From contig NZ_JACHFZ010000002.1 in NCBI RefSeq assembly GCF_014202075.1, positions 434,001-498,000 of the forward strand: a stretch of 64,000 bases of DNA, read 5' to 3'. The stretch's first letter is position 1. Every line of letters starts with the position of its first letter. The notes under the pieces are model-generated. The model ran no database searches and was not told where the DNA came from. It saw only the letters and a list, made by a program, of their open reading frames with translations. Positions 34,226-58,464 of the stretch are shown piece by piece. This stretch comes from Brevundimonas basaltis (GTDB taxonomy: Bacteria; Pseudomonadota; Alphaproteobacteria; Caulobacterales; Caulobacteraceae). The translations under genes were made by a program, and so were the position numbers.

Positions 34226-34301
34226 GCCGCTTTAGCTCAGCTGGTAGAGCATCGCATTCGTAATGCGGGGGTCAGGTGTTCGAGTCACCTAAGCGGCACC
34301 A
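34226..34301 (+). tRNA. tRNA-Thr (anticodon CGT)
   Basis: 76 bases forming a complete cloverleaf: acceptor GCCGCTT/AAGCGGC, D-arm GCTC..GAGC, anticodon stem TCGCA/TGCGG with loop TTCGTAA (anticodon CGT, reads ACG), T-arm AGGTG/CACCT with loop TTCGAGT, discriminator A and encoded CCA. It is the integration site of the tandem elements downstream, and its 3' half is repeated at 55145. Confidence 0.97.
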
Positions 34302-34303
34302 CC
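34257..34303 (+). repeat. Attachment site copy 1 (tRNA-Thr 3' end)
   Basis: 47 bp from the anticodon loop through CCA plus two bases, identical to 55145-55191. This is the classic signature of tyrosine-integrase insertion into a tRNA 3' end, which leaves the tRNA functional. Confidence 0.93.
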
Positions 34304-34433
34304 ACTCCAGAGCCACTCTAACTAGGAAGACGACGCGCGAGCGGTGGGAGTGCCGTATCGCTGGGTCGGCGCGTGGGTCCCAGCTGGGTGTGCCGTTGGT
34401 CCGCTTCTGACTCGTTGTGCTACCCATTCCTGA
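34304..34433. other. Conserved element left end, copy 1
   Basis: Sequence just inside att copy 1 aligns with that after copy 2: CCACTCTAACTAGGA is identical, then CGAGCGG.GG.AG.GCC, CGCTGGG and GCGTGGGTCC.AGCTGGGT match with few changes. It contains an imperfect dyad CTAGGA...TCCCAG. It probably carries integrase arm-binding sites. Confidence 0.65.
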
Positions 34434-35306: not shown

Positions 35307-35522
35307 CAGTTGGAACCGCTAGGAAACAAGCGCAGAAATCCGCAGACGCTAGTGCGTCAAATGCCGCTCATGACACGATGTGGCGGTTCAGAACGTCGCT
35401 CGCCGGCGTTAAGCGCGTCTAGTTCAATCTGCTCAGCTTTCGAAGCTGTCCCGGCGGCAGAGCATTTTTGGTGGACCGTCCGCCATCTTCTCATGCAATG
35501 GTTGCGTCGGGAGAGGGTTCAA
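35160..35522. other. 363-bp intergenic stretch
   Basis: It holds the right 16-bp inverted repeat and presumably the divergent promoters of the membrane protein and helicase genes. The helicase frame is open to 35310, but that part reads as low-complexity and lacks the conserved helicase start. Otherwise nothing recognised. Confidence 0.4.
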
Positions 35523-41609: not shown

Positions 41610-41682
41610 GTGATCAGTACCGCGTCCAAGTTATTTGCGGATCGCGAGTTCTTGACGGGGCCGATCCAGGGGAGGGGATTCT

Positions 41683-43044
41683 ATGACGAAGTTGCCATCC
41701 ATCCTTAACAGGGGCGAGCCTTCTCGTCTCTTTCCAGTGCTCGCTGACACATCAAAAGAGGGCCGGACGCTCTCGATCTTCCTCGCCTGTCTCGAGAACG
41801 TCGATGAGTTCGGCAGAGCTATGATGGCTAGCCTCGATCAGCGGATGGGTGTTCGGGCAAGGATCGAAACCTACACGGAAGTCGGGCTCCAAAAGACCAT
41901 CGCGGGGGCGAAGCATCGACCTGATGGTTTGGTCGTGGTGAGCACGGGCAAGTCAACGTGGACAGCTTTGGTCGAGGCGAAAGTCGGCGCTGCTGAGCTG
42001 ACCAACGAGCAAATCGAAGCCTACCTAAGTTTGGCCAAGCTGAACGGCATTGACGCCGTCATCACGTTATCGAACCAGTTCACCTCCTTGCCGACCCACC
42101 ATCCCTTGGCTGTAAGCGGAGCGCTTACCCGCAAAGTGGACCTGTTCCACTGGTCTTGGGGTTACGTGATCACGCAAGCCCACGTCCTGCGAGAGACAGG
42201 GGACGTTGCTGATCGTGAACAACTCCTCCTCCTCAGCGAACTGCAGCGGTTTCTGCTCCACCCAAGCTCGGGAGTGAAGGAGTTCGATCAGATGCCAGCC
42301 GCTTGGGCTGAGCTTTGTGCCAAGGTTAGTGCCGGGGCGCTTCCGACCGCCAGAGCAATCGAAACCCAGCAGGTTGTCGGTGCTTGGCATCAAGTTCTTG
42401 AGCGAGTGACCTCCGTGCTCAGTCGCCAGTTGAACGATCATGTCGAGGTGCAAATGTCGCGCGCTGAAGCGAGCGATCCAGCCGTTCGTATGAAGGGCTC
42501 GCTCGAAAGCCTTACGCGTGAGGCTTGCCTTACGAACCACCTTCTCGTTCCCGCCGCCGCTGCGCCAATCCAGATTTCTGCGGACCTTCGAAAACGTGCG
42601 GTCAGCCTTCATATGCGGCTGAAAGCGCCCGCCGATCGTCAGTCGACGAAGGCGAGGGTGTCATGGCTTTTGCGGCAGCTAGCTCAGACGGAAGTGCGCG
42701 ATGTGCACGTCAAACTCCTATGGCCTGGCAGGGCAGCGGCCACTCAGTTCCCGCTGGCGAAGTTGCGGGACGCACCGGAGTTGGCGAGCCAAGACCGGGA
42801 GGGAATGAGCGTTCTTTCATTCGAGGTTCTGCTCGTGAAGGACTTGGGAGCCAAGTTTGCTCAGCGCAAAATTGTTGTGACTGAGCTGATCAAGGCTTCG
42901 ACAGAGTTTTATAACGGTGTGGGTAGCAGCCTGACTGCGTGGCAAGCGAAGCCTCCCAAGATCTCAGATGCCAAGCTGGCACCAGCGTCAGTCAGCGCCG
43001 AAGCTCTGAGAGAGCAGGTGGAGCAAGAGGCGCTAGATCGCTGA
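41683..43044 (+). CDS. PD-(D/E)XK-like nuclease-domain protein, partner of the giant helicase
   Basis: 453 residues. The N-terminal third has a nuclease-like core: AKHRPDGLVVVSTGKSTWTALVEAKVGAAELTNEQIEAYLSLAKLNGIDAVITLS, i.e. an Asp, then ExK after a hydrophobic strand, then a helix with Gln, as in PD-(D/E)XK folds. The rest (about residues 150-453) is not recognised: a helical region, then a beta-rich segment RKRAVSLHMRLKAPADRQSTKARVSWLLRQL. It lies 73 bp after the helicase on the same strand, so they are likely cotranscribed as a two-gene system. Confidence 0.75.
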   Translation: MTKLPSILNRGEPSRLFPVLADTSKEGRTLSIFLACLENVDEFGRAMMASLDQRMGVRARIETYTEVGLQKTIAGAKHRPDGLVVVSTGKSTWTALVEAKVGAAELTNEQIEAYLSLAKLNGIDAVITLSNQFTSLPTHHPLAVSGALTRKVDLFHWSWGYVITQAHVLRETGDVADREQLLLLSELQRFLLHPSSGVKEFDQMPAAWAELCAKVSAGALPTARAIETQQVVGAWHQVLERVTSVLSRQLNDHVEVQMSRAEASDPAVRMKGSLESLTREACLTNHLLVPAAAAPIQISADLRKRAVSLHMRLKAPADRQSTKARVSWLLRQLAQTEVRDVHVKLLWPGRAAATQFPLAKLRDAPELASQDREGMSVLSFEVLLVKDLGAKFAQRKIVVTELIKASTEFYNGVGSSLTAWQAKPPKISDAKLAPASVSAEALREQVEQEALDR

Positions 43045-43350
43045 GCGTCTCCACCGAGTGACCGCCGCGTGATGTCGTCTTCTGGAGCAAGGCCGGCGTT
43101 CGAACGCGCAACCAGCGGTATCTTATATGAAGATAACCAAGCTCCACATCGAGTAGCACTGGCCTAGCCGAGCCGTGTTTTTGGTTGGAAGCTGCTTCCC
43201 GGAGTGAAAGCTTCGCCGGGACAAACTCAAGAAGAACAACGCGTTTCAACCGATCACTAGCGCCCCTCGCGGGCACCCTCGACCCGCCCAACCCGAGCCC
43301 TCGTGACCTCCGTCGCGGGGGCTTTTTCTTTGCTTTGAAAGGAACCCTCC
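43045..43350 (+). promoter_or_regulatory. Conserved leader of element 1 core operon
   Basis: This region matches 57680-57989 of element 2 in several blocks: CAGCGGTATCTTATATGAAG (43115; CAGCGGTAACTTATAAGGAA in element 2), TGGCCTAGC, CCCGGAGTGAA, CAAACTCAAGAAG and GATCACTAGCGCCCCTCGCG. It ends with a terminator hairpin and a Shine-Dalgarno before the acidic gene. The A/T-rich CTTATA box may be the promoter -10. Such conservation in non-coding DNA suggests a shared control region. Confidence 0.65.
43296..43328 (+). terminator. Terminator/attenuator hairpin before acidic gene A1
   Basis: AGCCCTCG (43296-43303) pairs with CGGGGGCT (43316-43323, one T-G wobble), followed by TTTTTC. The ATG is only 23 bp after the T-run, with GAAAGGA in between. 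One of four such hairpins in the two elements. Confidence 0.7.
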
Positions 43351-43737
43351 ATGAAGTCACTCACCGACCGAGACGCGGTCACCGCCGCCCTCACAGACAC
43401 CACCCTGGATCCTGACCTTCGAGCCCTGATCGGTCTTCGAGTCTGGCAGGTAGACACCGATCGCCGGCTGCCCCTCGGCGAGACCCTCCAGATCGTCGTC
43501 GTCCAGCCCGGTGATCCTCCTGAGGTCATTCACGACGCAGTGGGCTTCCCGATCTGTTGGGATCAGGCGGAGCAGCCCGGCTGGGAGTGGTTCAACGACC
43601 ACGGCTCATGGTTCGAGCTAGCCTACGTCCTGACGGACGACTTTGGGATGCTGGTGCTCGTGCCGGACCATCCCGACACCAACGACACCCTCCTCTTCAA
43701 CTGCCGAGGCGTCGCAGACCGAAAAGACCCGGCCTGA
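43351..43737 (+). CDS. Small acidic protein A1 (element core family)
   Basis: 128 residues. By eye about 23 Asp/Glu against 9 Lys/Arg, so strongly acidic. It begins MKSLTDRDAVTAALTDTTLDPDLRALIGLRVW and contains QIVVVQPGDPPEVIHDAVGFPICWDQAEQPGWEWFNDHG. It is closely similar to the protein at 57990-58379 in element 2 and more distantly to its own downstream neighbour at 43826. Not a family I can name. Its charge and its place in a mobile element would fit a DNA mimic, such as an anti-restriction protein, but that is only a hypothesis. Confidence 0.8.
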   Translation: MKSLTDRDAVTAALTDTTLDPDLRALIGLRVWQVDTDRRLPLGETLQIVVVQPGDPPEVIHDAVGFPICWDQAEQPGWEWFNDHGSWFELAYVLTDDFGMLVLVPDHPDTNDTLLFNCRGVADRKDPA

Positions 43738-43775
43738 AACCCCTTTCCCCTCCTTCCGCCGACCCATCCGCCCGC

Positions 43776-43806
43776 GCCCTCCGACACCCGTCGCGAGGGC
43801 TTTTTC
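43776..43806 (+). terminator. Terminator/attenuator hairpin before acidic gene B1
   Basis: GCCCTC (43776-43781) pairs with GAGGGC (43795-43800), followed by TTTTTC. The ATG of the next gene is 20 bp downstream with CCGAAAGGAC between them. Confidence 0.7.
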
Positions 43807-43825
43807 ATGCCCGAAAGGACCCCCG

Positions 43826-44197
43826 ATGCTTTCACTGACGGACTGTGCCTCTACAGCGAGCGCCCTGAACGATCCCGACCTCGACCCCGATCTGCGCGTC
43901 CTGATCAGCCTGCGCACTCGGAACCTCAGCGACGACACCAAGCTCTTCATCGTCCAGGGCGGCGACACGCCAGAGGTCATCAACGAGGCCCTCGGCTTTC
44001 CCATCACAGGGGATCAGGCTGAAGAGCCTAGCTATGACTGGATCGAGGATCACGGCCGGTGGTTCGAGATCGCTCTCCACCCGAGCGACGAGGGGCCCAC
44101 CCGCATCTTCGTGGAGAACGGCCCCGGCACCGAGTTGGGGGTCCACTACCTGTGTCAGTCGCACTTCTGGTTCGACGGCGAGGGAAGCCGCCGGTGA
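43826..44197 (+). CDS. Small acidic protein B1 (element core family)
   Basis: 123 residues from ATG (MLSLTDCASTASALNDPDLDPDLRVLISLRTRNL). It shares with protein A the pattern LTDxxxxxxAL.D..LDPDLR.LI.LR, VVQ/IVQGGDTPEVIN.ALGFPI..DQAE and YDWIEDHGRWFE, so A and B are paralogues. The element 2 equivalent is at 58465-58860. Its stop overlaps the GTG of the next gene (GTGA). Function unknown. Confidence 0.8.
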   Translation: MLSLTDCASTASALNDPDLDPDLRVLISLRTRNLSDDTKLFIVQGGDTPEVINEALGFPITGDQAEEPSYDWIEDHGRWFEIALHPSDEGPTRIFVENGPGTELGVHYLCQSHFWFDGEGSRR

Positions 44198-44514
44198 AGC
44201 ACGCTCTCACGTTCGCCATTCTGATCGTTGCTTTTGCGATCCTGAAGGCCGTGGTGATCGCTCTCGTGATCGGGCTGGCTCTAGCGCTGATCTACTCCTT
44301 CGCCAGACAGCCACGAGAGACGCTGCTTTTCCTTGGCGTTCTCACTGTGACCGGGCTCGCCGGTGCTCAGCCTGCAGCCTTCATTGCGGCCGTCGCGGTC
44401 ATCTGCGTTACGGCCCTAATCTTCGGCCACCGGCGACGGAGTACGGGCGACAACCAGTCCCAAGCCCATCCGGCACGGCCTCTGATCGAGCTTGAACCTA
44501 GATCGAAGGCTTAG
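44194..44514 (+). CDS. Small membrane protein C1 (element core family)
   Basis: 106 residues from GTG. Hydrophobic segments are HALTFAILIVAFAILKAVVIALVIGLALALIYSFA and LLFLGVLTVTGLAGAQPAAFIAAVAVICVTALIF, separated by a basic RQPRETLLF loop, with a polar basic tail. The element 2 equivalent (58857-59144) shares RxPRETLLFxxVxVVTGLAxAxPAxFI. Translationally coupled to B1. Function unknown. Confidence 0.75.
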   Translation: MKHALTFAILIVAFAILKAVVIALVIGLALALIYSFARQPRETLLFLGVLTVTGLAGAQPAAFIAAVAVICVTALIFGHRRRSTGDNQSQAHPARPLIELEPRSKA

Positions 44515-44755
44515 CGGGTAGCCGCTTCAATACCTCAGCAAACAGCCGCGCCGGGTCTGCCTCCATCGCCCTCGCCAGTGCGACGAACTCCAGAACGTCC
44601 ACTCGGCGTTGGCCGCGTTCGATGATGGAGATGAAGGTCTGATCCTTCTGGACCCGGTCGGCCAGCTGAGCCTGCGTTAGGCCGGACTTTTGCCGAGCCT
44701 CCGCCAACACCTCGACGAGGTGTCGATGCTCGCCGCCGAAGATCGTCTTGGGCAT
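44498..44755 (-). CDS. XRE-family HTH regulator
   Basis: 85 residues from the ATG at 44755; a GTG at 44788 is possible. LVEVLAEARQKSGLTQAQLADRVQKDQTFISIIERGQRRVDVLEFVALARAMEADP is a full XRE/Cro-CI helix-turn-helix. Its 3' end overlaps the end of C1 by 17 bp, convergently. It occupies the position held by a LysR-type HTH protein in element 2. It probably controls the divergent gene and core functions through the TATGGAA dyad. Confidence 0.88.
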   Translation of the reverse strand: MPKTIFGGEHRHLVEVLAEARQKSGLTQAQLADRVQKDQTFISIIERGQRRVDVLEFVALARAMEADPARLFAEVLKRLPAKPSI

Positions 44756-44829
44756 CCGTGCGTCGCCGATTCCAAACCGGCAACCCACGTATATGGAAAA
44801 TTCGCTTAGGCAGTTTTTCCGTTTTTAAC

Positions 44830-44846
44830 TATGGAATCTTTCCATA
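44830..44846. promoter_or_regulatory. Perfect dyad TATGGAA-TCT-TTCCATA, likely XRE operator
   Basis: 7-bp arms with a 3-bp spacer, between the divergent XRE gene and the gene at 44906. A half-site TATGGAAAA lies at 44792. The dyad size and position suit an XRE repressor. Confidence 0.6.
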
Positions 44847-44905
44847 ATTTCAAGCCGGCGCTTTGGCTGGCATCCGCCCCACATTCACACCAAGGAAGCA
44901 AACTC

Positions 44906-45493
44906 ATGCTGATCTACGCATTAGCCACGATCCTACTTATCCAGTCGAACCCGCAGCCGGCTCAGCGGGCCGAGCCACCGCAATCCCAGCGTTTCGGTGC
45001 TTGGGAGGTTCGCACCCGCGTCGATGCCATCACCGATGAAGTATCCATCGGAGCCTATCTGGGAACGCCTGCTGACAATCTCGCGATCGCGTGCGCCCAG
45101 AACTCGCCAGACTCAACGGTCGTTCTCTGGCGATCGACTACGCGGTTCCGTCAGACAGGCTACATCCCGCGGACAGGACAAGATGCCAGGATGTATGGCT
45201 GGCCCGTGGGAAGCACGACCTACCGCTTCGACCAAGACCCGCCGGTAGATGCCTGGATATTCGGGCGGCAAGATTACAGCAGTGGTTTCGGCCTGACTGA
45301 CATCCAAGGCATCACAAGGCGAATTGCCACCAGTACGCGGATGGTCCTCCGGGACCGACTCTTCGAAACACACACCGTCAGTTTCGCCTTGGTCCCAACC
45401 GACACCCTCAGGATGCTGCGGCGTCTGGACGAGGTTTGCGGGACCAATCTCAGCGCCCCGCCGACTGACCAATCCGAAGCGGGTCGGCCGTAA
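44906..45493 (+). CDS. Secreted hypothetical protein
   Basis: 195 residues from an ATG preceded by AAGGAAG. The signal sequence is LIYALATILLIQSN. The mature part (RFGAWEVRTRVDAITDEVSIGAYLG, ACAQNSPDSTVVLWRS, RQTGYIPRTGQDARMYGW) has two cysteines and a beta-rich look; the opening FGAWEVRTRVDAITDE recalls periplasmic invasion-associated-locus-B-like domains, but I would not assign it. Present only in element 1, between the regulator and replication protein. Confidence 0.65.
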   Translation: MLIYALATILLIQSNPQPAQRAEPPQSQRFGAWEVRTRVDAITDEVSIGAYLGTPADNLAIACAQNSPDSTVVLWRSTTRFRQTGYIPRTGQDARMYGWPVGSTTYRFDQDPPVDAWIFGRQDYSSGFGLTDIQGITRRIATSTRMVLRDRLFETHTVSFALVPTDTLRMLRRLDEVCGTNLSAPPTDQSEAGRP

Positions 45494-46080
45494 ACACCGT
45501 TCAAACGGGGAATGATCCAAGGCGACCGGCAGAAGGTGGTTTCAGCCGGTCGCCAGCTCAAGTCCTACGGGAAGGTACGTTCGGTAGCTTAAAATGCCGG
45601 CGTAACAAGTAATAGGCGTCCGCAGGACAGATTTATTTTCCCACCGTTACGCGCGATAACTCAGCAATCGCTCCAAAACTCCCGAAAGTGGCGAATTATG
45701 CCTTTGACATCCTTCTCGGCGGGTGGTTGTCAGAAGGTCCAGCGCCGCCGCTAGGCGAAAAGACATGCTGAGAAGGGCTCGCCGGACCAGGCCCGCCCCC
45801 CGCTACGTCGCGGGGGGTCTCGTTCTTCCCGCAAGTGCGGATGCCTACCCCCCCGGTCCTCCCCTCTCATCGTAAATACTCAAATGACAAACGATCTCGA
45901 TCGTTCGGACGATGACGCCTGCCCGTCACCGAAGCCGAATGATCAAAAAGCCAAACCCCGCATCCATGATGCGCCCGGCGACACTCCCCAGTCTGGCGGC
46001 ACGGTCGCGCTCTGATCCGAGTGAGTCTGCTTCGGATGCCGCCGGCGGATGCGTCGGCAGAACCTGTGAGGACAGGAGAA
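45494..46080. other. 587-bp gene-poor stretch with two hairpins
   Basis: A perfect 10-bp stem (GGCGACCGGC 45521-45530 with GCCGGTCGCC 45545-45554) follows the secreted-protein gene, and CCCCCCGC/GCGGGGGG (45796-45803, 45810-45817) precedes TCTCGTTCTT, a plausible terminator. A 43-codon ORF (45884-46015, MTNDLDRSDDDACPSPKPND) is possible but lacks a ribosome-binding site. The region may contain the promoter or origin for the replication gene. Confidence 0.45.
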
Positions 46081-47316
46081 ATGAACATAAGAAAAGAGAT
46101 CGGGCCATTCCCGGACCGTCCGCCCCCAAGGTCGGATCGCCCGCCGGCCACGATCGCCAACGTCGAGCACCTACTGGAACATGCTGGCATCAAGGTGCGC
46201 TACAACGAGGTCAGCAAACGCGACGAAATCTTGCTCCCCAACAAAACGGGATCAAGAGACAACGTCGACAACGTCACCCTCACCTACATCATCAGTCTGG
46301 CTGCTGAGCACCACATACCCACCGGCAATGTCCCGGGTTTTGTGGAGGCCATCGCCAACAAGAATGCGTACAACCCAGTCCAGGACTGGATACGCAGTCG
46401 ACCATGGGACGGCACAGATCGACTGCCTGACGTCTACGGGACCGTCGTTCAGGCGGAAGGGTACCCCGAAAGCCTGAAGGAGATCATCCTGCGGAAATGG
46501 CTTCGCAGTGTCTCAGCGGCGGCAACCCGAAACAACTTTCGGAGCCGAGGCGTCCTGACCCTTCAGGGGGCACAGGGCGCTGGAAAATCCAGCTGGATTA
46601 AAGCCTTGATCTCCGACCCGGACCTGGCCGATGGCGTGATCAAGCTTGGTCACCACATGGACCCGTCCAATAAGGACTCCCTTATTGGAGCCATAGGGTT
46701 CGCGATCACCGAGATCGGCGAGCTCGACAGTTCGTTCAAGAAGGACATCGCTCGGCTAAAGGGCTTCCTGACGGATGACACTGACCGGGTTCGTCGGCCT
46801 TACGATCGTCGGGAGTCGAGCTACCCCCGACGGACGGTGTTCGCTGCGACCGTCAACGAGCACCAATTCCTACAGGACCCCACCGGGAACACACGCTTCT
46901 GGACCATCCCGGTCGCGTCCCTGAACTGGCAACACCAGATCGACATGCAGCAGGTGTTTGCTCAGCTAGCTCAGGAGGTGGAGGAAGGCGAGACATGGTG
47001 GTTGGCAGACGACGAGGAGGCCCTGCTTAACGACCTGAACTCGCGTCACAGCACCGCCAGCCCCGTAGCTGAACGACTGGCGGAGATGGTCGATATCGAC
47101 CGCATCGGCGCAGAAGGTCTTGCTGCAATGTCGGCCAGCGAGGTTCTCGAAGCGCTCGCTTTCCCGCTAACCAACCCGATGGCGCGCGAAGCTGGGGCCG
47201 CTCTAAGGAACCTCCTGGGCGACCCAAAGAAGATCAACGGTACCATGAAATGGCGTGTGCCCGTCCGCGACGTCGACGGATCCAACCCTGCTAAGCCGTG
47301 GGGGAAACCGTACTGA
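46081..47316 (+). CDS. VapE-family replication NTPase (D5/SF3-like)
   Basis: 411 residues from an ATG with AGGACAGGAG upstream. The virulence-associated-E domain is recognisable: NPVQDWIRSRPWDGTDRLPDVYG, then LTLQGAQGAGKSSWIKAL (Walker A near residue 165), IGFAITEIGELDSSFKKDIARLKGFLT, RRPYDRRESSYPRRTVFAATVNEHQFLQDPTGNTRFW. VapE proteins are replication/helicase-like NTPases of phages, PICIs and other satellites. No primase domain is visible in this copy. It likely drives element replication after excision. It replaces the unrelated primase-like protein of element 2. Confidence 0.9.
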   Translation: MNIRKEIGPFPDRPPPRSDRPPATIANVEHLLEHAGIKVRYNEVSKRDEILLPNKTGSRDNVDNVTLTYIISLAAEHHIPTGNVPGFVEAIANKNAYNPVQDWIRSRPWDGTDRLPDVYGTVVQAEGYPESLKEIILRKWLRSVSAAATRNNFRSRGVLTLQGAQGAGKSSWIKALISDPDLADGVIKLGHHMDPSNKDSLIGAIGFAITEIGELDSSFKKDIARLKGFLTDDTDRVRRPYDRRESSYPRRTVFAATVNEHQFLQDPTGNTRFWTIPVASLNWQHQIDMQQVFAQLAQEVEEGETWWLADDEEALLNDLNSRHSTASPVAERLAEMVDIDRIGAEGLAAMSASEVLEALAFPLTNPMAREAGAALRNLLGDPKKINGTMKWRVPVRDVDGSNPAKPWGKPY

Positions 47317-47807
47317 ACCGCGCCCGGACCGGGGCACCGGGAGGTGGGGGGAGGGGGTAGAGAAAAGCTTGAGATGATCGGTCCGAAAGACCGATCAAGA
47401 CGGCGAATCTCCCGCCCCTCCCCCCCACCACCTTCTGGCTGCCGCCCGGCGTGCGACGCCGTCTGCGGCTCTTCCATTGTCTTGATGTCCGCTCCCCGGT
47501 GGCGTCCCCCAGCGGCACCGTCGGGGGCACCCTGGACGCCTCCCACCAACTCGCCCGCCGGCAGTTGCTAGCCTCGGCTGCGGCAGGATTCCGGCGAGCC
47601 GAGGGGGCCGAAACGTGGTCCCGGGGCGGCCGTCCGGCCCCCGCCGATCACCCCACCATCCCCGCCCCCGACGCGTGGCCCCTGCGGCCCACTCTGGGGC
47701 ACCGCGGGCCCGACCCGCTCCAGACGACCCACCCTAATCGACCGCCTTCCCGGGCCGCCTGACGGCGCTCGCCCGTGGAACATCAAACATGCAAGGAGAC
47801 TAATCCC
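47317..47807. other. Gene-free stretch with conserved GC/pyrimidine-rich block (47655-47775)
   Basis: 491 bp without a credible ORF. The last part, 47655-47775, is nearly identical to 61946-62066 before the element 2 integrase (for example CCCGACGCGTGGCCCCTGCG and CCTGACGGCGCTCGCCCG). It is rich in C and G with G/C-run dyads. Conservation in front of both integrases suggests a promoter/operator, origin or integrase-binding region. Confidence 0.7.
47375..47397. repeat. 9-bp-stem hairpin after VapE gene
   Basis: TGATCGGTC (47375-47383) and GACCGATCA (47389-47397) are perfect complements around CGAAA. No T-run follows on the plus strand, so it may be a protein-binding dyad or an origin structure rather than a terminator. 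Confidence 0.55.
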
Positions 47808-48962
47808 ATGCCCAAGGCCAAACTCGACCACGCCTTTGTGTCCACCGCGCAATGCCAGCCCGGCAAAGCCAAAACCGACTGGTACGACACGATCGTCACC
47901 GGCTTCGTCTTCGAGCGTCGTTCCAGCGGCGGCGGCACCTACTACTTCCGCTTCTCCGATGCCGCCGGTCGGCAGGCTCAATATAAAATAGGCGGTGAAA
48001 CGGACATCAGCTTTGCAGCCGCAAAGAAGCGCGCGGTGCAGCTCAGGTCCGAGGTCGTCATGGGCGGCGACCCGAGGGCCAAGAAGGCAGAGGCGAAGTC
48101 CATACCTCTGTACAAGGAACTCTCGGCCATGCATCTCGCCGACGCGAAGCTCACGCAGCGGTCCTACTCGACGACTGAGGCTTATGTCAGAATCCATGTG
48201 ATCCCTAGGTGGGGAAAGGTCCGGCTCACCGACATCGAACCGCGCGCCATCTCCCAGTGGCTCGGCGAGAAGCGAGCCGAAGGACTGGCACCGGCGACGG
48301 TCGAAAAGATCAGGGTGATCTTCGGCCGATCCTTCGAGCTCGGCGCTAGATGGGGCGTCCCCGGGACTGACAAGAATCCGGTCAGGGCGGTGTCCAGGAA
48401 GCCCTTTCAGAACGCGAAGGAGAGATATCTCAGTCGGGAAGAATCGATCAGGCTTCGAGAGGCAGTCGCGCAGTCGCAGAACACCCAGCTGCAACATGTC
48501 GTCGGCCTGCTTCTGCTGACAGGTGCCCGGGTTCGCGAGCTCCTGGACGCGAAATGGTCAGACGTGGACGTCGAGCGTAGATCTTGGCTGATACCCACCT
48601 CGAAAACAGGGAAGCCACGCCACGTCCCGCTCTCGACGCCGGCGATCGCGATCATAGAAGCCCTTCCTCGCTTCAAGGACTGCCCTTTCTTGATACCGAA
48701 CCCTGACACCCTGAAGCCCTTCGTGTCGATCAAGCACAGCTGGCAGCGGGCGATTAAGGTGGCGAAGCTGCCCGGTCTGAGAATCCACGATCTCAGGCAC
48801 TCGGCGGCGTCCTTCATGGTCAACAGCGGTGTCGACCTGTTCGCCGTCGGCAAGGTGCTGGGTCACGCTAGTTACCAGTCAACCCAGCGGTATGCGCACC
48901 TCGCCAACGACACCTTGCTCGCCGCCGTCGAGGCGGGTGCCGCGAAACAGGCTGCGGCCTAA
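47808..48962 (+). CDS. Tyrosine recombinase/integrase of element 1
   Basis: 384 residues from the ATG at 47808 (AAGGAG upstream). The N-terminal arm-type DUF4102-like domain (DWYDTIVTGFVFERRSSGGGTYYFRF) and SAM-like core-binding domain are followed by the catalytic domain with all residues: Arg in LTGARVRELLDAKW, Lys in PTSKTGKPRHV, HDLRHSAASF, LGHASYQST and the nucleophile Tyr in QRYAHLAND. About three quarters identical by eye to the integrase at 62095. It should recombine at the tRNA-Thr att sites, though it lies about 6 kb from the nearer att. Confidence 0.96.
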   Translation: MPKAKLDHAFVSTAQCQPGKAKTDWYDTIVTGFVFERRSSGGGTYYFRFSDAAGRQAQYKIGGETDISFAAAKKRAVQLRSEVVMGGDPRAKKAEAKSIPLYKELSAMHLADAKLTQRSYSTTEAYVRIHVIPRWGKVRLTDIEPRAISQWLGEKRAEGLAPATVEKIRVIFGRSFELGARWGVPGTDKNPVRAVSRKPFQNAKERYLSREESIRLREAVAQSQNTQLQHVVGLLLLTGARVRELLDAKWSDVDVERRSWLIPTSKTGKPRHVPLSTPAIAIIEALPRFKDCPFLIPNPDTLKPFVSIKHSWQRAIKVAKLPGLRIHDLRHSAASFMVNSGVDLFAVGKVLGHASYQSTQRYAHLANDTLLAAVEAGAAKQAAA

Positions 48963-48968
48963 CTGCTT

Positions 48969-49025
48969 CCCCGCTTCGCGCGCTGGCTTCGGCTGGTTCG
49001 CGGGGCGGGGACCCGTTCTTTTTTT
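48969..49025 (+). terminator. Conserved terminator after integrase 1
   Basis: CCCCGC (48969-48974) can pair with GCGGGG (49000-49005); the loop contains CGCGCGCTGGCTTCGGCTGG and the stem is followed by a long T-run. The same loop and stem occur after the element 2 integrase. Confidence 0.6.
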
Positions 49026-49214
49026 CACCTTGGTGGGTCGTGCGCGTCAGCGCGCATAATGGACATTCCACGAATCAACTCGGGGGACGTCTGCAACGGG
49101 TGGGATGCGGATTTGCGGCTATCCGTGGCCGCTCGGGTCAGCTCGACAAACAACCTTGGCTTTACCGGTGCCCCACGCGACGGCTAGCATTGGTTTCTGA
49201 TCTGAGGAGCGACC

Positions 49215-49526
49215 ATGAAAGGCACGTTGAAAAAGGTTTGGGAGATATACCTCGGCGTTGGCGCAATCCTCGCTTCATCGGCCTTCATCAGCACCCACTT
49301 GGCGTTATTCTTAGTCCCCGGACGCCTTTACGAACAAAGCGGCGGCGAAGTAGGAACCGCGATCTGGGGCACAATCGTCTTTTACGTCATCAACTGTATC
49401 GGCGCGATCCTCCGCGCTTTCCTCTGGCCAATCAGCCTGGTTGCGCTGTTGAGCGGGCAAATCGGCTTCTGGGAGTTTCTTTTCCCGGCTCTCTATGGGA
49501 TGCCATCGGTCGTGTCGCCGCCCTGA
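49215..49526 (+). CDS. Small polytopic membrane protein
   Basis: 103 residues from an ATG with GAGGAGCG upstream. Three hydrophobic segments (YLGVGAILASSAFISTHLALFLV, AIWGTIVFYVINCIGAILRAFLWPISLVALL, IGFWEFLFPALYGM). No family recognised. First cargo gene after the integrase of element 1. Confidence 0.65.
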   Translation: MKGTLKKVWEIYLGVGAILASSAFISTHLALFLVPGRLYEQSGGEVGTAIWGTIVFYVINCIGAILRAFLWPISLVALLSGQIGFWEFLFPALYGMPSVVSPP

Positions 49527-49637
49527 CAGAGCGGGCATTGAGCGCACGTGCGCAAAGGGTCGGAAGCGGGCGTTGGTTAGATCCAGTGCTACAAGCTATG
49601 CCACCAGTTCTTGCGCGAACCATCCCGAGGTCCCGAA

Positions 49638-50396
49638 GTGCGGCGATACCTAATCATCGGAGTAGTCGCTTTCCTTGCAAACTGCGAGCAAGCGCCAGAA
49701 GCTCCGACTGCAGCAGCCCTGATCCGAGACGGTGTCCCGACGGCGTGCTCACATCCGGCGACCATGGCGGCGCTCAAGTCCGAAACCGGCGAATATGAAG
49801 GCGAGATTGGCTCAATTACCTTCGCGGGACGGGATGCCGCTCTTTATCAAGTCAGTTGCGAAGCAACGATCGGTGAGGCGTCGGTAAGCTATCAGGTCAG
49901 AGAAAACTTGGCCCTCCCCGGCGCAGTAACCGTTATCGTCGCCCGCTCTCCCGCTTCTTCGGCCCCCTCTCCCGCGAGCAGCGCACCATCCGCTCCGAAG
50001 CCGCGTCCGGTGTTGGCGTCGGCGCGAGGTCACACCTTTGACGTGCCGACCAACTACCCTGCGGCATTCTCCCTCTGGCGTCAGCAAACGGCTAGCCTTC
50101 CCCTTGAGGGCCGTCCGTGGGTTAGATCGCTTCGCGGGACCGCTGCGGAGGTGCGAAGTGTGCGCGTGGATGGCAGCGAGTATCTGTATGGCTGGGTCTG
50201 CGAGCCCCATAACTGCGGCGGAAACGAAGTTGCTCTGCTGTTGACCCGCGACCAAGGCAGAGTGGTTGGCCTCGTCCGACTGACCAATGAAAATCGTGAA
50301 ACCAACGACTTCCAAGTGGGGTCGCCAACTGCGCCTGAGGCTCGTTGCCTGCGGTTCTTCCTAGAGGATCGTTCCGACGCCACGCGGTGCTTCTGA
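49638..50396 (+). CDS. Lipoprotein with Ivy-like (lysozyme inhibitor) C-terminal domain
   Basis: About 252 residues from the GTG at 49638 (MRRYLIIGVVAFLANCEQ), a lipoprotein signal with lipobox LANC. The C-terminal 120 residues hold WVCEPHNCGGNEVALLLTRDQGRVVGLVRL, close to the CKPHDC block and following strands of Ivy, the periplasmic inhibitor of vertebrate-type lysozyme. The N-terminal domain (ALIRDGVPTACSHPATMAALKSETGEYEG) is separated by a Ser/Ala/Pro linker. Its role could be protection from host, predator or phage lysozymes; that is inferred. Confidence 0.75.
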   Translation: MRRYLIIGVVAFLANCEQAPEAPTAAALIRDGVPTACSHPATMAALKSETGEYEGEIGSITFAGRDAALYQVSCEATIGEASVSYQVRENLALPGAVTVIVARSPASSAPSPASSAPSAPKPRPVLASARGHTFDVPTNYPAAFSLWRQQTASLPLEGRPWVRSLRGTAAEVRSVRVDGSEYLYGWVCEPHNCGGNEVALLLTRDQGRVVGLVRLTNENRETNDFQVGSPTAPEARCLRFFLEDRSDATRCF

Positions 50397-50544
50397 CCGG
50401 GTGCGGGTGAGGACGTGTCTTTCTCCGCGGAGGCCCACCGAACCGGGTTAGTTCATTATGTCGGCCATCGTTAGATCGCAGAGTTATTGGTGGCTGATGC
50501 GCAACCGTGGCCCTATAAATCGGTAGGCCTTGGGGGAGGACGCA

Positions 50545-51870
50545 TTGAACCACGATCCGCGAGGATATTACGCGTCCTTGGAACTTCCGACGGACGCCAG
50601 CGCAACCGCGATCAAGGCTTCCTACCGGCGACTGGCCAAGCAACTGCACCCTGACCGCAATGCTGATCCGACTGCGGCTTCTAAATTCTCCGCTTGCAGC
50701 GAGGCGTATGCGGTCTTGGGGGATCCCGACAAGAAGGCGGCCTACGATAGCGCCGTCTATGAAGAGGCCGCTGCCCATCAAGAAGACGAGCCGCTCGAGC
50801 CCATCCATTGCTCGTCGTGCCGCAAACCTACGGCACAGCCCCGCAACGTCATTTTTAGAAGCGTCGTCAGCGTCGTCATCACCACGATAACTACGCCCGT
50901 TCAGGGCATATTCTGTTCAGTCTGCGCGAGAAAGGCTGGGCTTCGGGCATCAATTGTTTCTGGCCTGTTTGGGTGGTGGGGTGTCCCTTGGGGTCCAATT
51001 CTCACTGTCAAAGAGATCGTCCGAAACTCCATGGGAGGCGAGCGGAAGCCGGAACTCGACGACCGGCTGGCCTACTACAACGCCGTTGCCTTTGGGTCCC
51101 GGGGGCACCTCAACCTTGCTCACGCGATCGCCCGACAGTTACGCAACGCGAAGGACGAAGGCTTGGCCCTGGACGCCCTCAGGCTGGTGGATCATTTGGA
51201 GCGCGCCGGGGTTCCGAAAAGCGGTCCTGCGCTCAAATCCGGCTGGGAAAATAAGGCCGACCATTGGTTGGTCCATGGAGCGTCCTTGCTAGCCGTTCCC
51301 GCCGCCATTCTGCTGGCGATTGTGATGACGAGCGGCGGGAGCTCGCGTGCAGCGGCGGGGCAGCCCTATTCGCCCTACGACTACACAACGCCAAGACCTT
51401 CGAGGGCCGTCACACCCCCGAACCTCCCCGCGGAGCCAATGCCCTCAGTCCCGGTCTGTTCGGACCCGCCCAAGAACGGCGATGAGTTGCAACGTGACGG
51501 TTTCAAAGAGGACGGCCATCGCATCACGATCGATAATGGCGGATCGGGCAATGCCTTGGTGAAGGTCCGGAATGATACCGGACGGCGCGTCGCCACCCTC
51601 TATGTCGGCCGCGCTCAGCAGGGCTCGATCAACGATCTGCCAGACGGTCGATACCGCATTTCGTTCGCGGTCGGGGACCAGCTCGATGCATCATGCGCAG
51701 CCTTCGCTGGCGACTTCCAGGCGCAGCAGTTTCCTGGGGTCGAGACGTTCGAAACGAGGGTTGAGGGAGACCAAATTATCAGCAGCCACCTCCGCCTGAC
51801 GCTTCACTCGGTCACCGGGGGTAACGTCCGCCCACAAGGGTTAAGCGATGCCGCCTTCGACGCGGACTGA
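50545..51870 (+). CDS. J-domain (DnaJ-like) membrane protein
   Basis: 441 residues from a TTG with GGGGGAGGA about 6 bp upstream. The J domain covers residues 5-70 (DPRGYYASLELPTDASATAIKASYRRLAKQLHPDRN with HPD). Then cysteine pairs CSSC and CSVC form a possible zinc site around a hydrophobic stretch, followed by a transmembrane helix (LLAVPAAILLAIVMTSG) and a C-terminal beta domain (ALVKVRNDTGRRVATLYVGRAQQGSINDLPDGRYRI). J domains recruit Hsp70. It heads a cluster with SPFH, zinc-ribbon, YbjQ and SHOCT proteins. Confidence 0.85.
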   Translation: MNHDPRGYYASLELPTDASATAIKASYRRLAKQLHPDRNADPTAASKFSACSEAYAVLGDPDKKAAYDSAVYEEAAAHQEDEPLEPIHCSSCRKPTAQPRNVIFRSVVSVVITTITTPVQGIFCSVCARKAGLRASIVSGLFGWWGVPWGPILTVKEIVRNSMGGERKPELDDRLAYYNAVAFGSRGHLNLAHAIARQLRNAKDEGLALDALRLVDHLERAGVPKSGPALKSGWENKADHWLVHGASLLAVPAAILLAIVMTSGGSSRAAAGQPYSPYDYTTPRPSRAVTPPNLPAEPMPSVPVCSDPPKNGDELQRDGFKEDGHRITIDNGGSGNALVKVRNDTGRRVATLYVGRAQQGSINDLPDGRYRISFAVGDQLDASCAAFAGDFQAQQFPGVETFETRVEGDQIISSHLRLTLHSVTGGNVRPQGLSDAAFDAD

Positions 51871-52107
51871 CCTCCTGCGCGCTGCTTGGGAGACTCCGCC
51901 GGGGATCGGTATCGGCGGCCTCCAAAGCCATCGGTCGATCGACTTGGATCGAGGCACCTGACGAGCAATTTAGGTTGTACTTGTCTCTCGATCCACGGAT
52001 GTATAGCTCGGACCTTGGGGGCGCATCGGCGGCACGTGAGTGCGGTGTCGGTGACTCGGTGTCTGACGAAGAGGGGCATTGACCCTATCAGTTCAGAGGG
52101 GATTGGC

Positions 52108-53271
52108 GTGGGACTAGTTAGAGCGGCGTTCGGAGCGATCGGCGGCTCTCTGGCGGATCAGTGGAAAGATTTCCTGACCATCCCTGCGAACTTGCCGCCC
52201 ACGGCCGCACTTTTTCCTGCTGTCCCTGCCGGCACCAACGCCGGGCGCGGGTCGAACGTTCAAGCCTCCCGCTCGATCATCACGAACGGCTCTCGTCTCG
52301 TAGTTCCCGAAGGCTACGGACTGCTGCTCCTCCAAGACGGTGAGCTAACTGGGTTTGCAAGCGACCCCGGCGGCTACGTCTGGGAGTCAGAGAACGTCGA
52401 GTCCCAATCCTTGTTTGCAGGTGACACGATTGCGGCTTCGCTCGTGCGACAGTCATGGGAACGTTTCAAGTTCGGCGGGCGGCCTAGCGGCCAACAGCTC
52501 GCGCTTTTCGTCAGCCTAAAAGAGCTCCCCCACAACAAGTTCGGGACCCAATCAGAAATCTATTGGGACGACGCCTATCTCAACGCACAAGTGGGCGCGA
52601 CGACCAGAGGCACCTACAGCTTGAGGATTGTGGACCCCATCCTCTTTGCGAAACAGTTCGTCCCGGCGTCTTATTTGCAGGGGCAGGATTACTTTGATTT
52701 CACAGACCGTGAAAATGCTGCAGCAAATCAGCTCTTTTCCGAGGTGGTTGGCTCTCTGGCCGCAGCCTTCAGCATTTACACAAACGATGCCGGCAAAGGG
52801 AACCGCATCACCAAAATCCAACAGGATTCGGTCGGCTTCGCTGCCTCGCTCGGGCAGGCAGTCGAGGACGGATATCAATGGCTGGGAACGCGTGGGCTTG
52901 CCATAGCCAAGGTCGCCATTCTCGGGATTGAATACGATGAGCAAACGCGAGATTTGCTCAGGACGGTTCAGCGCGCCGACGCCCTGACTGGCGCTCGCGG
53001 AAACGCCAACCTTCAAGCTTCCGTTGCCTCGGGCATAGCCTCCGCTGGAGAAAGTGCCGGCACCGGAGGGCTTCTGGGCATGGGCATCGCCGCAGGTTCA
53101 ATGGGGCTGTCCGACCTGATGCAAAAATCCCCCCCAGCGGACTCCGCATCCAGTGGTCGGGCCAGCCAGGATCTGGTCATGGTTCTCGAGAATTTGAAAC
53201 GGGCTCTCGACGCCGGGCTGATTGATCAGTCTGAGTTCAACGCTGCAAAGGCCCGAGCGCTCGGGCTCTAG
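52108..53271 (+). CDS. SPFH-type protein with C-terminal SHOCT-like segment
   Basis: 387 residues from a GTG with AGAGGGG upstream. The pattern SIITNGSRLVVPEGYGLLLLQDGELTGFASDPGGYVWESE followed by GATTRGTYSLRIVDPILFAKQFVP is that of YdjI/virion-core-like SPFH proteins that form membrane-associated rings. The C-terminus LENLKRALDAGLIDQSEFNAAKARAL is a SHOCT-like short helical hairpin. A Gly/Ser-rich linker joins them. Likely membrane-surface scaffold. Confidence 0.8.
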   Translation: MGLVRAAFGAIGGSLADQWKDFLTIPANLPPTAALFPAVPAGTNAGRGSNVQASRSIITNGSRLVVPEGYGLLLLQDGELTGFASDPGGYVWESENVESQSLFAGDTIAASLVRQSWERFKFGGRPSGQQLALFVSLKELPHNKFGTQSEIYWDDAYLNAQVGATTRGTYSLRIVDPILFAKQFVPASYLQGQDYFDFTDRENAAANQLFSEVVGSLAAAFSIYTNDAGKGNRITKIQQDSVGFAASLGQAVEDGYQWLGTRGLAIAKVAILGIEYDEQTRDLLRTVQRADALTGARGNANLQASVASGIASAGESAGTGGLLGMGIAAGSMGLSDLMQKSPPADSASSGRASQDLVMVLENLKRALDAGLIDQSEFNAAKARALGL

Positions 53272-53300
53272 AAGAGTTGGTGATCACAGGCAACGCATAG

Positions 53301-53561
53301 ATGAAAATCATCAACTGCACCAAATGTGGAAGCAACGATCTGCTTCAAGAAGAACACTACGTTGTGTGTTCATATTGTCGGATTAAGTTCACGCCGTCGG
53401 TCGTAGATGCTCCGGCACCTAAATCTGTCATATCAGTTTATGACGATATTCAGGCGCTAATCATAAGGTGTCAGAATGAACCTCATAATAGAAGACGAAT
53501 CGCTGGATTAATCTTAGACATTGATCCCTCGAATATCGAAGCGCAAAAATATCTAAGATAG
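53301..53561 (+). CDS. Zinc-ribbon small protein
   Basis: 86 residues. CTKCGSNDLLQEEHYVVCSYCRIKF is a C-x2-C...C-x2-C zinc ribbon; the rest is helical (YDDIQALIIRCQNEPHNRRRIAGLILDIDPSNIEAQKYL). The DNA is clearly more AT-rich than its neighbours, suggesting separate origin. It lies between SPFH and YbjQ-like genes with gaps of about 30 and 10 bp, so in one operon. Confidence 0.75.
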   Translation: MKIINCTKCGSNDLLQEEHYVVCSYCRIKFTPSVVDAPAPKSVISVYDDIQALIIRCQNEPHNRRRIAGLILDIDPSNIEAQKYLR

Positions 53562-53571
53562 GGCTTGGAAA

Positions 53572-54192
53572 ATGAAGACCAAAGATATCGCGGCGAAGTA
53601 CGGGCTCGCCCATGGCCAGTTCGACGCCTGGCTCTCGAAGACGAAGTCGGTTCCCTTTAAATCGAGCATGATTGGGGGTCTTTCGATCGACAACGATGCC
53701 GATGTAGAGGTCGCGGTCAGGCGTTTTGAAGAGCACGTAGCAGAGCGCGAAAGCAGGGCTGCTGAAGAACGTGCGGCGCAAGACGCAGAACGTGTCGCCG
53801 CGGAGAAGGCCGCGGACGATAAACGTAAAGCATTGGCTAGCATGCTCATAACCTCGGGATTCAATTTCGATGGTTACACCATCACGAAGTATTCTGGGTA
53901 TATCTCGGGAGACGATGTCGTACAGATCGATCGCGGAACCTCTGGGTTTTTCTCTACCGCCACCAACGTAGGGGAGAGTCTGATGACTTCCCTATCGAGC
54001 ATCAGGCGACGGGCTCTGGCCGAGCTTAAGGAGGCGGCATACGACCTCGGATGCAACGCCGTGGTTGGCGTTGATTTCGACTACCTCACCCTTGATCCCG
54101 AAACTGCCTCGTCGAGTGGCGGTACTATGTATTTGCCCTACGTCTTCGGGGTGACTGCCAACGGCAATGCCGTCGTCATCGAGAAAAACTGA
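53572..54192 (+). CDS. YbjQ/UPF0145-type heavy-metal-binding domain protein
   Basis: 206 residues. The N-terminus MKTKDIAAKYGLAHGQFDAWL looks like a short HTH. A charged coiled region follows (RRFEEHVAERESRAAEERAAQDAERVAAEKAADDKRK). The C-terminal domain ITSGFNFDGYTITKYSGYISGDDVV...LKEAAYDLGCNAVVGVDFDY is the YbjQ/DUF74 fold, which forms pentamers. It follows the zinc-ribbon gene by 10 bp. Function in this setting unknown. Confidence 0.82.
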   Translation: MKTKDIAAKYGLAHGQFDAWLSKTKSVPFKSSMIGGLSIDNDADVEVAVRRFEEHVAERESRAAEERAAQDAERVAAEKAADDKRKALASMLITSGFNFDGYTITKYSGYISGDDVVQIDRGTSGFFSTATNVGESLMTSLSSIRRRALAELKEAAYDLGCNAVVGVDFDYLTLDPETASSSGGTMYLPYVFGVTANGNAVVIEKN

Positions 54193-54368
54193 CGTGTGTG
54201 AGCCGTCGCGACACCCGCCCGCCGCTCGGCATCGAACCGGCATGCGCGTGTTTGACCATAGTGCGGCGAAGAGTTGCTTTGACCCCTTCGGTCACTCCAA
54301 ATTAGCTGGGGGGCCGGGGGTGGTCACGGCGCGAGCCGCGTTGAGCTTTTAGGGACCAAGCTAAACTG

Positions 54369-54938
54369 ATGGCCAACAATCAAGGATCCCGGGGCTGGCT
54401 TGTTCTTTTCGCTATCTGCATAGCCGTTGGACTTGTCCTGGGGGGCGGCGCTTTTCGGTCGCATCAGATTACCGAAGAGCTGCGATTGAAGCAGGTCGAC
54501 GCGGAGGCGTCAGCTCCCCGGTTCAGTGACTATGAATCGATGACGAGCAGCGACCCCGGCTTCGCTACTCGAAACACCTTGCGACGAGAGGTTTTTCAAG
54601 CCGACGACGCCACGAGGAGGTGGTTGGACGCCCTAAGTGTTTACGCCGTGCTGTTCGCTGCACTCCTTGCGATAGCGGCGGTGGTGTATCTCGCTCGCGG
54701 AATCAGATTTGAGGCCGCCCGAAAGGCGGAGGCGGATAGGGAAGCCGGGGTGGAACCGCTCACGATGCGGATCGCGCGGGCCGCTAGCGAAATCAAACGG
54801 GCCATCCCCCGTCAGCCCACCCTAGCGGGAGGGAGATTATCTACCGCAGATGAGCTGCGAAAATGGACTGCTCTGCGTGAGGAAGGTCTCGTTTCCGAAG
54901 AAGAGTTTTTGAAAATGCGTGAGAAGCTGCTCGGGTAA
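54369..54938 (+). CDS. Two-helix membrane protein with SHOCT-like domain
   Basis: 189 residues. Transmembrane segments WLVLFAICIAVGLVLGGGAF and LSVYAVLFAALLAIAAVVYLARG enclose a periplasmic stretch. The cytoplasmic C-terminus ADELRKWTALREEGLVSEEEFLKMREKLLG is a SHOCT hairpin like that at the end of the SPFH protein, suggesting that the two oligomerise or share a partner. Last gene of element 1. Confidence 0.78.
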   Translation: MANNQGSRGWLVLFAICIAVGLVLGGGAFRSHQITEELRLKQVDAEASAPRFSDYESMTSSDPGFATRNTLRREVFQADDATRRWLDALSVYAVLFAALLAIAAVVYLARGIRFEAARKAEADREAGVEPLTMRIARAASEIKRAIPRQPTLAGGRLSTADELRKWTALREEGLVSEEEFLKMREKLLG

Positions 54939-55144
54939 TCCCGTCGCGCCATGAGCGGCAGTTCCGCAGGTATGGCGCAGGTCGGGATTTCGTCCGTTCC
55001 CACGTTAAATCGCGCAACTTAGGAAGCGGCCCTGCCGACCCCTCGGGCCAATCTGGGAAGAGCCTGGGTTGGGGTGCTGAACGTCTCTAAAATTCGGCTC
55101 AGAACCATTGTCCATAAGGCTTTCCCGACGGGGGTGGAGTAGCC

Positions 55145-55191
55145 TTCGTAATGCGGGGGTCAGGTGTTCGAGTCACCTAAGCGGCACCACC
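55145..55191 (+). repeat. Attachment site copy 2 (tRNA-Thr 3' fragment)
   Basis: Exact copy of 34257-34303. Upstream bases do not continue the tRNA, so this is only a 3' fragment, the junction between elements 1 and 2. Confidence 0.93.
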
Positions 55192-56275: not shown

Positions 56276-56326
56276 ACAAAGCTCCTGAGATAACCAAAGG
56301 TCGGCTGGCGGCTTGCCGTACGCTTG

Positions 56327-58379: not shown

Positions 58380-58410
58380 GCCAACACAACCCAACCTCCA
58401 TCCGACCCGA

Positions 58411-58442
58411 GCTCTCCCGGCACCGCCGCGAGGGCTTTTTTC
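58411..58442 (+). terminator. Terminator/attenuator hairpin before acidic gene B2
   Basis: GCTCTC (58411-58416) pairs with GAGGGC (58430-58435, one T-G wobble) followed by TTTTTTC. The ATG is 22 bp downstream with CCGAAAGGA between. Confidence 0.65.
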
Positions 58443-58464
58443 TTGCCCGAAAGGATACCCGCCT

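What the first reader, a model, noticed from the sequence alone, without database searches (positions are those of the whole stretch)
50545..54938. J-domain, SPFH, zinc-ribbon, YbjQ and SHOCT gene cluster as element cargo
Five co-oriented genes encode a membrane J-domain protein, an SPFH ring-type protein with a SHOCT-like end, a zinc ribbon, a YbjQ pentamer-fold protein, and a two-helix membrane protein with SHOCT. The shared SHOCT hairpins and membrane scaffold domains suggest one membrane-associated complex, possibly for envelope stress or phage sensing.
Basis: partly seen in the sequence, partly recalled or inferred. Interest (0 to 1): 0.55.

Follow-up and report, generated by a model that had tools for sequence, protein, structure and literature searches.

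The report
Mobile SPFH–zinc-ribbon–YbjQ gene trio
Three of the five genes form a unit that recurs in distant bacteria and probably builds a scaffold under the cell membrane; here it travels on a mobile element whose relatives often carry anti-virus genes in the same slot, so it is an untested candidate for guarding the membrane or fighting phages.

Summary
The five co-oriented genes are real, and so is the element: an exact 45-bp tRNA-Thr 3'-end repeat brackets a 20.9 kb integrase element (34302-55189). The five are not one conserved cluster. The core is three tightly spaced genes: SPFH(+SHOCT), an 86-aa zinc ribbon, and a ~200-aa YbjQ protein with an N-terminal winged-helix-like domain and coiled coil. 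In 77 of 80 genomic SPFH relatives the neighbour is instead a ~430-aa double-zinc-ribbon (YdjG-like) protein, which no trio tested has. The J-domain and two-TM SHOCT genes are beside no other trio. Related elements carry defence-type genes in the same slot in 4 of 9 copies; the host genome lacks PspA. Best reading: a mobile, PspA-free variant of the YdjGHI-type SPFH membrane module, probably for envelope or phage stress. Anatomy and linkage are shown; function is inferred.

The parts
34226..34301 (+). tRNA-Thr(CGT); its 3' 45 bp (34257-34301) is the left attachment core
34302..55189 (.). integrated Element I, 20.9 kb, bracketed by exact 45-bp direct repeats
35310..41609 (+). 2099-aa helicase/nuclease matching PADLOC PDC-S37 and Hhe (left-hand defence cargo of Element I)
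46021..47316 (+). VapE-like primase-helicase of Element I (frame open from 46021; true start not settled)
   Evidence: PF05272 E 1.7e-47; phrog_1313
47775..48962 (+). tyrosine integrase of Element I
   Evidence: PF00589 E 6.1e-26
50545..51870 (+). J-domain protein: J domain (HPD), zinc-ribbon cysteines, TM, C-terminal beta-rich tail; not conserved next to the trio
52108..53271 (+). SPFH (Band_7_1) protein with C-terminal SHOCT, no TM; trio gene 1
53301..53561 (+). 86-aa zinc-ribbon protein; trio gene 2 (GC 0.41 against 0.55-0.62 for its neighbours)
53572..54192 (+). 206-aa protein: N-terminal winged-helix-like domain (aa 1-60), long helix (aa 42-87), YbjQ/DUF74 domain (aa 91-206); trio gene 3
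54369..54938 (+). two-TM protein with C-terminal SHOCT; possible membrane anchor; no trio-linked relative found
55145..55189 (+). right attachment core of Element I, also left core of Element II
   Evidence: exact 45/45 copy

Best explanation
The core is a mobile three-gene module: an SPFH scaffold with a SHOCT tail, a small soluble zinc ribbon, and a winged-helix/coiled-coil/YbjQ protein. It is a PspA-independent variant of the YdjI-type SPFH module in which the double-zinc-ribbon YdjG-like partner is replaced by the zinc ribbon plus the YbjQ protein. Likely working, step by step. (1) The three soluble proteins assemble through SPFH and YbjQ oligomerisation (inferred from family knowledge). 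(2) They dock on the inner leaflet through a membrane partner that differs between hosts: here the two-TM SHOCT protein and perhaps the membrane J-protein; in G1002 a double-zinc-ribbon TM protein encoded next door (gene shown, role inferred). (3) The assembly detects or contains membrane damage such as phage entry or lysis and envelope stress (inferred from YdjI and from the defence-rich cargo slot). The J-protein would recruit DnaK to clients at the same membrane site (inferred, weak).
For: Trio linkage in six places, in two gene orders, with neighbours within about 50 nt. Three of the six (G1002, G1362, G1575, one bacterial family) were found through YbjQ alone and then proved to have SPFH and zinc ribbon adjacent. 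Partner swap: the YdjG-like gene is next to SPFH in 77 of 80 genomic relatives (76 within 600 nt; L087 at 775 nt; L097 and L105 end at contig ends; L063 is a trio) and in 0 of the 5 trios examined there. SPFH tree: window and the Actinomycetales MAG are sisters at 100/99 support, and the five trio rows then known need 3 changes against a shuffled mean of 4.9, 1 of 500 shuffles as low. The mini zinc ribbon matches the first zinc ribbon of the YdjG-like protein by profile (hhalign probability 91.8, E 7.5e-7). None of the window's trio proteins has a TM, as reported for YdjI (PMC8581546). No PspA in the host genome. Cargo slot between integrase and att in related elements: mREase_II, retron type VI RT, MBL/LmuA-like, MmeI type IIG + helicase + GIY-YIG.
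Against: No phenotype, expression or interaction data exist here. PADLOC has no match for the J, SPFH or YbjQ proteins. In 5 of 9 related integrase copies the slot has no recognised defence gene, the window's two included. Some trios sit among what look like ordinary chromosomal genes (L127, L125), so the module need not be a defence system. The trio is rare: SPFH in the own genome only of 199 family genomes. The J and SHOCT-TM genes may be unrelated neighbours.
Confidence: 0.45

Rival explanations
1. One-component stress regulator: the winged-helix YbjQ protein is a transcription factor held at or released from the SPFH/zinc-ribbon membrane complex, analogous in logic to PspA-PspF or MerR-type control.
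For: The N-terminal domain (block pLDDT 77-89 over aa 1-60) resembles RacA (Z 6.9, rmsd 2.5, 58 of 68 residues) and MerR-family regulators (Z 5-6) (Foldseek probability 0.84-0.99 for RacA chains).
Against: Z below 8 can be a common arrangement. The first 60 residues are net acidic in 5 of 5 relatives (K+R 9,8,6,5,6 against D+E 10,9,9,7,10). No significant sequence match to MerR families (best Pfam E 0.16; none in NCBIfam; none in PDB sequences).
Confidence: 0.2
2. General envelope-maintenance module unrelated to phage (membrane fluidity, metal or alkaline stress) that happens to be mobile.
For: YdjI belongs to an operon induced by alkaline shock and affects membranes in B. subtilis (PMC8581546). 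The SPFH+YdjG-like form is found across Lysobacteraceae and Actinomycetes. Some trios lie among chromosomal genes.
Against: Here it sits in an element with an Hhe/PDC-S37 helicase at its other end, in a slot used for restriction and retron genes by sister elements.
Confidence: 0.25
3. Five unrelated cargo genes: chance neighbours accumulated in an integration hotspot.
For: The J and SHOCT-TM genes have no linked relatives. The zinc ribbon differs in GC (0.41) from its neighbours.
Against: 6 of 6 linkage for the trio.
Confidence: 0.05

Closest known systems
Bacillus subtilis pspA-ydjGHI (YdjI, a soluble SPFH protein that links PspA to the membrane with YdjG/YdjH; PMC8581546, abstract and passages read)
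   Same: Soluble SPFH protein encoded next to a zinc-ribbon gene; needs partners for membrane binding (shown for YdjI, inferred here).
   Different: No pspA, YdjG-like or TPM gene beside it; no PspA in the genome; SHOCT tail where the B. subtilis protein (YdjL in PMC11237479) has a zinc ribbon; a winged-helix YbjQ protein is added.
SPFH + ~430-aa double-zinc-ribbon operon of Lysobacteraceae, Comamonadaceae and Actinomycetes
   Same: SPFH 57-68% identical over its length.
   Different: The partner is a large double-zinc-ribbon protein with a C-terminal hydrophobic segment, instead of mini zinc ribbon + YbjQ.
YbjQ/DUF74 (PF01906; solved 1y2i, 1vr4, 2gtc, 3qkb)
   Same: C-terminal domain aa 91-206 by sequence and fold (Z 7.4 to 3qkb).
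   Different: The solved ones are 92-133 aa single domains; this one has an added winged-helix-like domain and long helix.
RacA and pSK1 Par DNA-anchoring proteins
   Same: N-terminal winged-helix fold (Z 6.9 and 6.7) followed by a coiled coil (their DNA-anchoring roles and coiled coils are recalled).
   Different: No sequence match; acidic domain; YbjQ in place of the RacA/Par C-terminus.

Membership tests
YdjI-type SPFH/PspA module | SPFH (Band_7_1) domain | tested here: met
   E 5e-5, just under the cut-off in the window; above it in L063, L008, L125, L127
YdjI-type SPFH/PspA module | adjacent YdjG-like double-zinc-ribbon partner | tested here: not met
   absent in the window and in the other trios tested
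Phage-shock (PSP) system | PspA/IM30 in operon or genome | tested here: not met
   PF04012: 0 of 1 own genome; control rings in 9 of 14
YbjQ/DUF74 | PF01906 domain | tested here: met
   43.2 bits against a cut-off of 23
YbjQ/DUF74 | homopentamer | not testable with these tools
   only single chains can be predicted
SHOCT (SPFH protein) | C-terminal SHOCT hairpin | tested here: met
   25 bits (cut-off 27) in the window; 30-38 bits in three relatives
SHOCT (two-TM protein) | C-terminal SHOCT hairpin | tested here: inconclusive
   23.9 bits against 27, E 3.2e-5
J-domain proteins | PF00226 with HPD | tested here: met
   71.3 bits against 27.8; HPD read
MerR/RacA-like DNA-binding proteins | winged-helix fold | tested here: inconclusive
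   Z 6.9, below the tool's level of trust of 8
MerR/RacA-like DNA-binding proteins | DNA binding | not testable with these tools
   domain is net acidic in 5 of 5, which speaks against
Known anti-phage systems (PADLOC 2.0.0) | match to a defence model | tested here: not met
   J, SPFH and YbjQ no match; zinc ribbon and two-TM protein not tested

The most novel reading that the evidence does not exclude
A new kind of mobile anti-phage or element-maintenance system in which an oligomeric winged-helix YbjQ protein, built like the DNA anchors RacA and pSK1 Par, ties DNA to an SPFH scaffold under the membrane through a zinc-ribbon adaptor, so that incoming phage DNA (or the element itself) is captured at the membrane.
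Probability: 0.1. Interest if true: 0.85.

Novelty: new variant of a known kind. Interest (0 to 1): 0.5.

Why it matters
The best-studied SPFH module of the YdjI type works with PspA and YdjG/H. A compact, mobile, PspA-free version with a winged-helix YbjQ partner gives a small, testable system for asking what SPFH proteins do at bacterial membranes. It also gives the orphan YbjQ family a genetic context: its solved members are labelled hypothetical or UPF0145, and Pfam's name only guesses heavy-metal binding.

Tried and rejected
Five-gene cluster as the conserved unit: rejected; no J or SHOCT-TM relative in 80 SPFH loci or the other trios' flanks.

PSP membership: rejected, no PspA.

DNA binding by the N-terminal domain: left open; acidic and no sequence match. 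I first guessed an IF2-N-like domain from the sequence; no listed result supported it.

J-protein fold: the single-sequence model is useless (mean pLDDT 38), so no fold search was made; the C-terminal tail gave only FlgD_ig at E 0.027, below cut-off.

Searches with nothing or little: J in viral contigs, none; YbjQ in 72,556 plasmid and 50,697 phage records, none; SPFH in plasmids, 2 distant records; J without its J domain in plasmids, 3 partial records; SHOCT-TM in plasmids, one tail match; viral scans with alignments returned only the contig already known. SPFH in 385 class genomes: two weak extra hits (26% and 32% identity), not followed. Generic YbjQ is common: 92 other genomes of 398, none with a match that begins in the first 49 positions of the profile. 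G1602 has a YbjQ without the winged helix and no SPFH on its 7.9 kb contig: not counted as a trio.

The SPFH tree used 79 of the 80 loci (L105, cut by its contig end, is missing) and was built before G1575 was found; the partner count likewise predates G1575. Promoter and terminator scans gave nothing above shuffles. PADLOC on sister cargo: 10 proteins chosen by me from the 49 ORFs printed, of which 21 lie before the attachment core; left arms of the sister elements were not examined.

The host's phylum is not told by any search; I take it for an alphaproteobacterium from gene content and GC (recalled, inference), so 'two phyla' rests on that.

Papers: PMC8581546 abstract and passages; PMC11237479 passages; PMC3581485 listing only. 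Searches for the combination showed no description of this trio; most subscription papers are not held.
Full report
What is there. The J-domain ORF is best started at the TTG at 50545, with a GGGGGAGG stretch just before it, and the SPFH ORF at the GTG at 52108, where relatives begin too. The domain assignments hold: J domain strong, YbjQ above its cut-off, SPFH and the two SHOCT tails slightly below theirs in this genome; for the SPFH protein both domains are above cut-off in relatives.

The element. The tRNA-Thr(CGT) at 34226-34301 lends its last 45 bp as a direct repeat found again, letter for letter, at 55145-55189 and at G000:C2:500803, that is 66803 on the window's scale. Two elements therefore sit in tandem. 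Element II (55190-66847, integrase 62095-63249) has a Mrr-type type IV restriction enzyme and a PD-Lambda-5_A protein at its left end. Genes of the elements have GC 0.55-0.66 (zinc ribbon 0.41), against about 0.74 for the genes I read as gpsA, tsaD and hemC next to the site (names by eye).

The cargo slot. Integrases of this family at E <= 1e-100 occur in 8 of 149 genomes of the host's family, 9 copies with the window's two. Each of the seven other genomes has a tRNA-Thr-like core (1 to 4 mismatches) downstream of the integrase. Between integrase and core, 4 of the 9 copies carry recognised defence-type genes: a mREase_II (L145), a type VI retron reverse transcriptase (L148), a metallo-beta-lactamase protein with weak LmuA/PDC-M48B matches (L149), and an MmeI type IIG enzyme with a helicase and a GIY-YIG-type (T5orf172) protein (L151). 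The other 5 (L146, L147, L150 and the two of the window) do not (I scanned 10 chosen proteins, left arms of sister elements not examined, L146's slot and Element II's right arm not scanned). So the slot favours defence genes, but position alone proves nothing for the window cluster.

The conserved core. A relative of the SPFH protein at 55% identity in an IMG/VR contig has next to it close relatives of the zinc ribbon (46%) and YbjQ protein (65%). One of these 80, L063 from an Actinomycetales MAG, has zinc ribbon and YbjQ downstream. Searches with the YbjQ alignment found three more (G1002, G1362, G1575, which share a family), and in each the zinc ribbon and SPFH genes are adjacent. Order is SPFH-ZnR-YbjQ in the window and L063 and ZnR-YbjQ-SPFH in the other four. 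The tally is 6 of 6 for the long, winged-helix-bearing YbjQ. One shorter relative (G1602, lacking that domain) had no SPFH on its short contig.

Partner swap. In the other genomic relatives the SPFH gene is followed by a ~430-aa protein with two zinc ribbons and a C-terminal hydrophobic stretch: 76 of 80 within 600 nt, one more at 775 nt, two cut by contig ends, one being the trio L063. None of the trios tested there has it. The profile of the mini zinc ribbon aligns with the first zinc ribbon of that protein. In the SPFH tree the window and L063 are sisters at full support, although L063 is an actinomycete and the window's host is taken for an alphaproteobacterium (inference), and the trio SPFHs are clustered more than shuffled labels. 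The Enterococcus row and L125 have long branches, so the deep order is unsure. This looks like an old alternative form of the module that moves between distant hosts.

The YbjQ protein. The model (mean pLDDT 61.8, three sequences) is good only for about residues 1-60. That part resembles RacA and pSK1 Par DNA-binding domains and MerR regulators, followed by a long helix and the DUF74 domain, which matches its solved relatives 3qkb, 1vr4 and 1y2i. The winged helix is acidic in all five sequences examined and has no significant sequence match, so DNA binding is not claimed.

Not part of the core. The J-protein belongs to a loose group with J domain, zinc-ribbon cysteines and a conserved FGWWG stretch, whose tails differ: a beta-rich tail here, an SH3 and aspartyl-protease tail in G020 (type I restriction-like neighbours by eye), a coiled-looking tail on a Deinococcus plasmid. 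The two-TM SHOCT protein has no relative beside any trio. In G1002 a double-zinc-ribbon protein with hydrophobic segments follows the trio. The membrane partner may thus be exchangeable; that is inference.

How it may work. YdjI of B. subtilis is a soluble SPFH protein that needs YdjG and YdjH to reach the membrane and is itself needed to bring PspA there (PMC8581546, abstract and passages). A comparative study links band-7, zinc-ribbon and SHOCT-like domains with sub-membrane stress complexes (PMC11237479, passages). The host here has no PspA. The most economical reading is a PspA-free SPFH assembly, brought to the membrane by a SHOCT or other TM partner, that guards or reports on the membrane. 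Its place in a defence-rich slot makes phage stress the first thing to test. Anatomy, linkage, partner swap and element are shown; membrane docking, oligomers and function are inferred.

Verdict. Observation confirmed; interpretation partly supported; new variant of a known kind; interest 0.5.

Noticed in passing
55337-57628 (Element II): A Mrr-type type IV restriction enzyme and a PD-Lambda-5_A-like protein (PADLOC E 5e-74) sit just inside the second element; a PD-Lambda-5 partner was not looked for.
   Followed up: partly
35310-43044: A 2099-aa helicase matching PDC-S37/Hhe, followed by a 453-aa protein with no Pfam, PADLOC or PHROG match, fills the left arm of Element I.
   Followed up: partly
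43198-44514 and 57831-59144: Both elements carry a repeated pair of small paralogous ORFs (68-89% identical DNA blocks), a shared backbone feature of unknown role.
   Followed up: no
49611-50396: A protein with an Ivy (lysozyme inhibitor) domain in its C-terminal half (E 2.5e-11) lies between integrase and J gene; it could counter phage or other lysozymes.
   Followed up: no
L133 (revcomp 9273-10916), G020: A J-domain/zinc-ribbon/TM protein with SH3 and retropepsin-like aspartyl-protease domains, next to what look like type I restriction genes; suggests membrane J-proteins with exchangeable tails in mobile elements.
   Followed up: partly
L148 2311-3490, G097: A type VI retron-like reverse transcriptase with a small HTH gene in the same cargo slot of a sister element at tRNA-Thr.
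   Followed up: no
53301-53561: The zinc-ribbon gene has GC 0.41 between neighbours of 0.55-0.59, although it is part of the conserved trio; its origin may differ from that of its partners.
   Followed up: no
L128 12951-19437: In the IMG/VR contig the trio lies right after three serine recombinase genes at the end of a prophage-like stretch, with lower GC3 (0.30-0.38 for YbjQ and SPFH) than the phage-like genes; inside or outside the prophage could not be told.
   Followed up: partly
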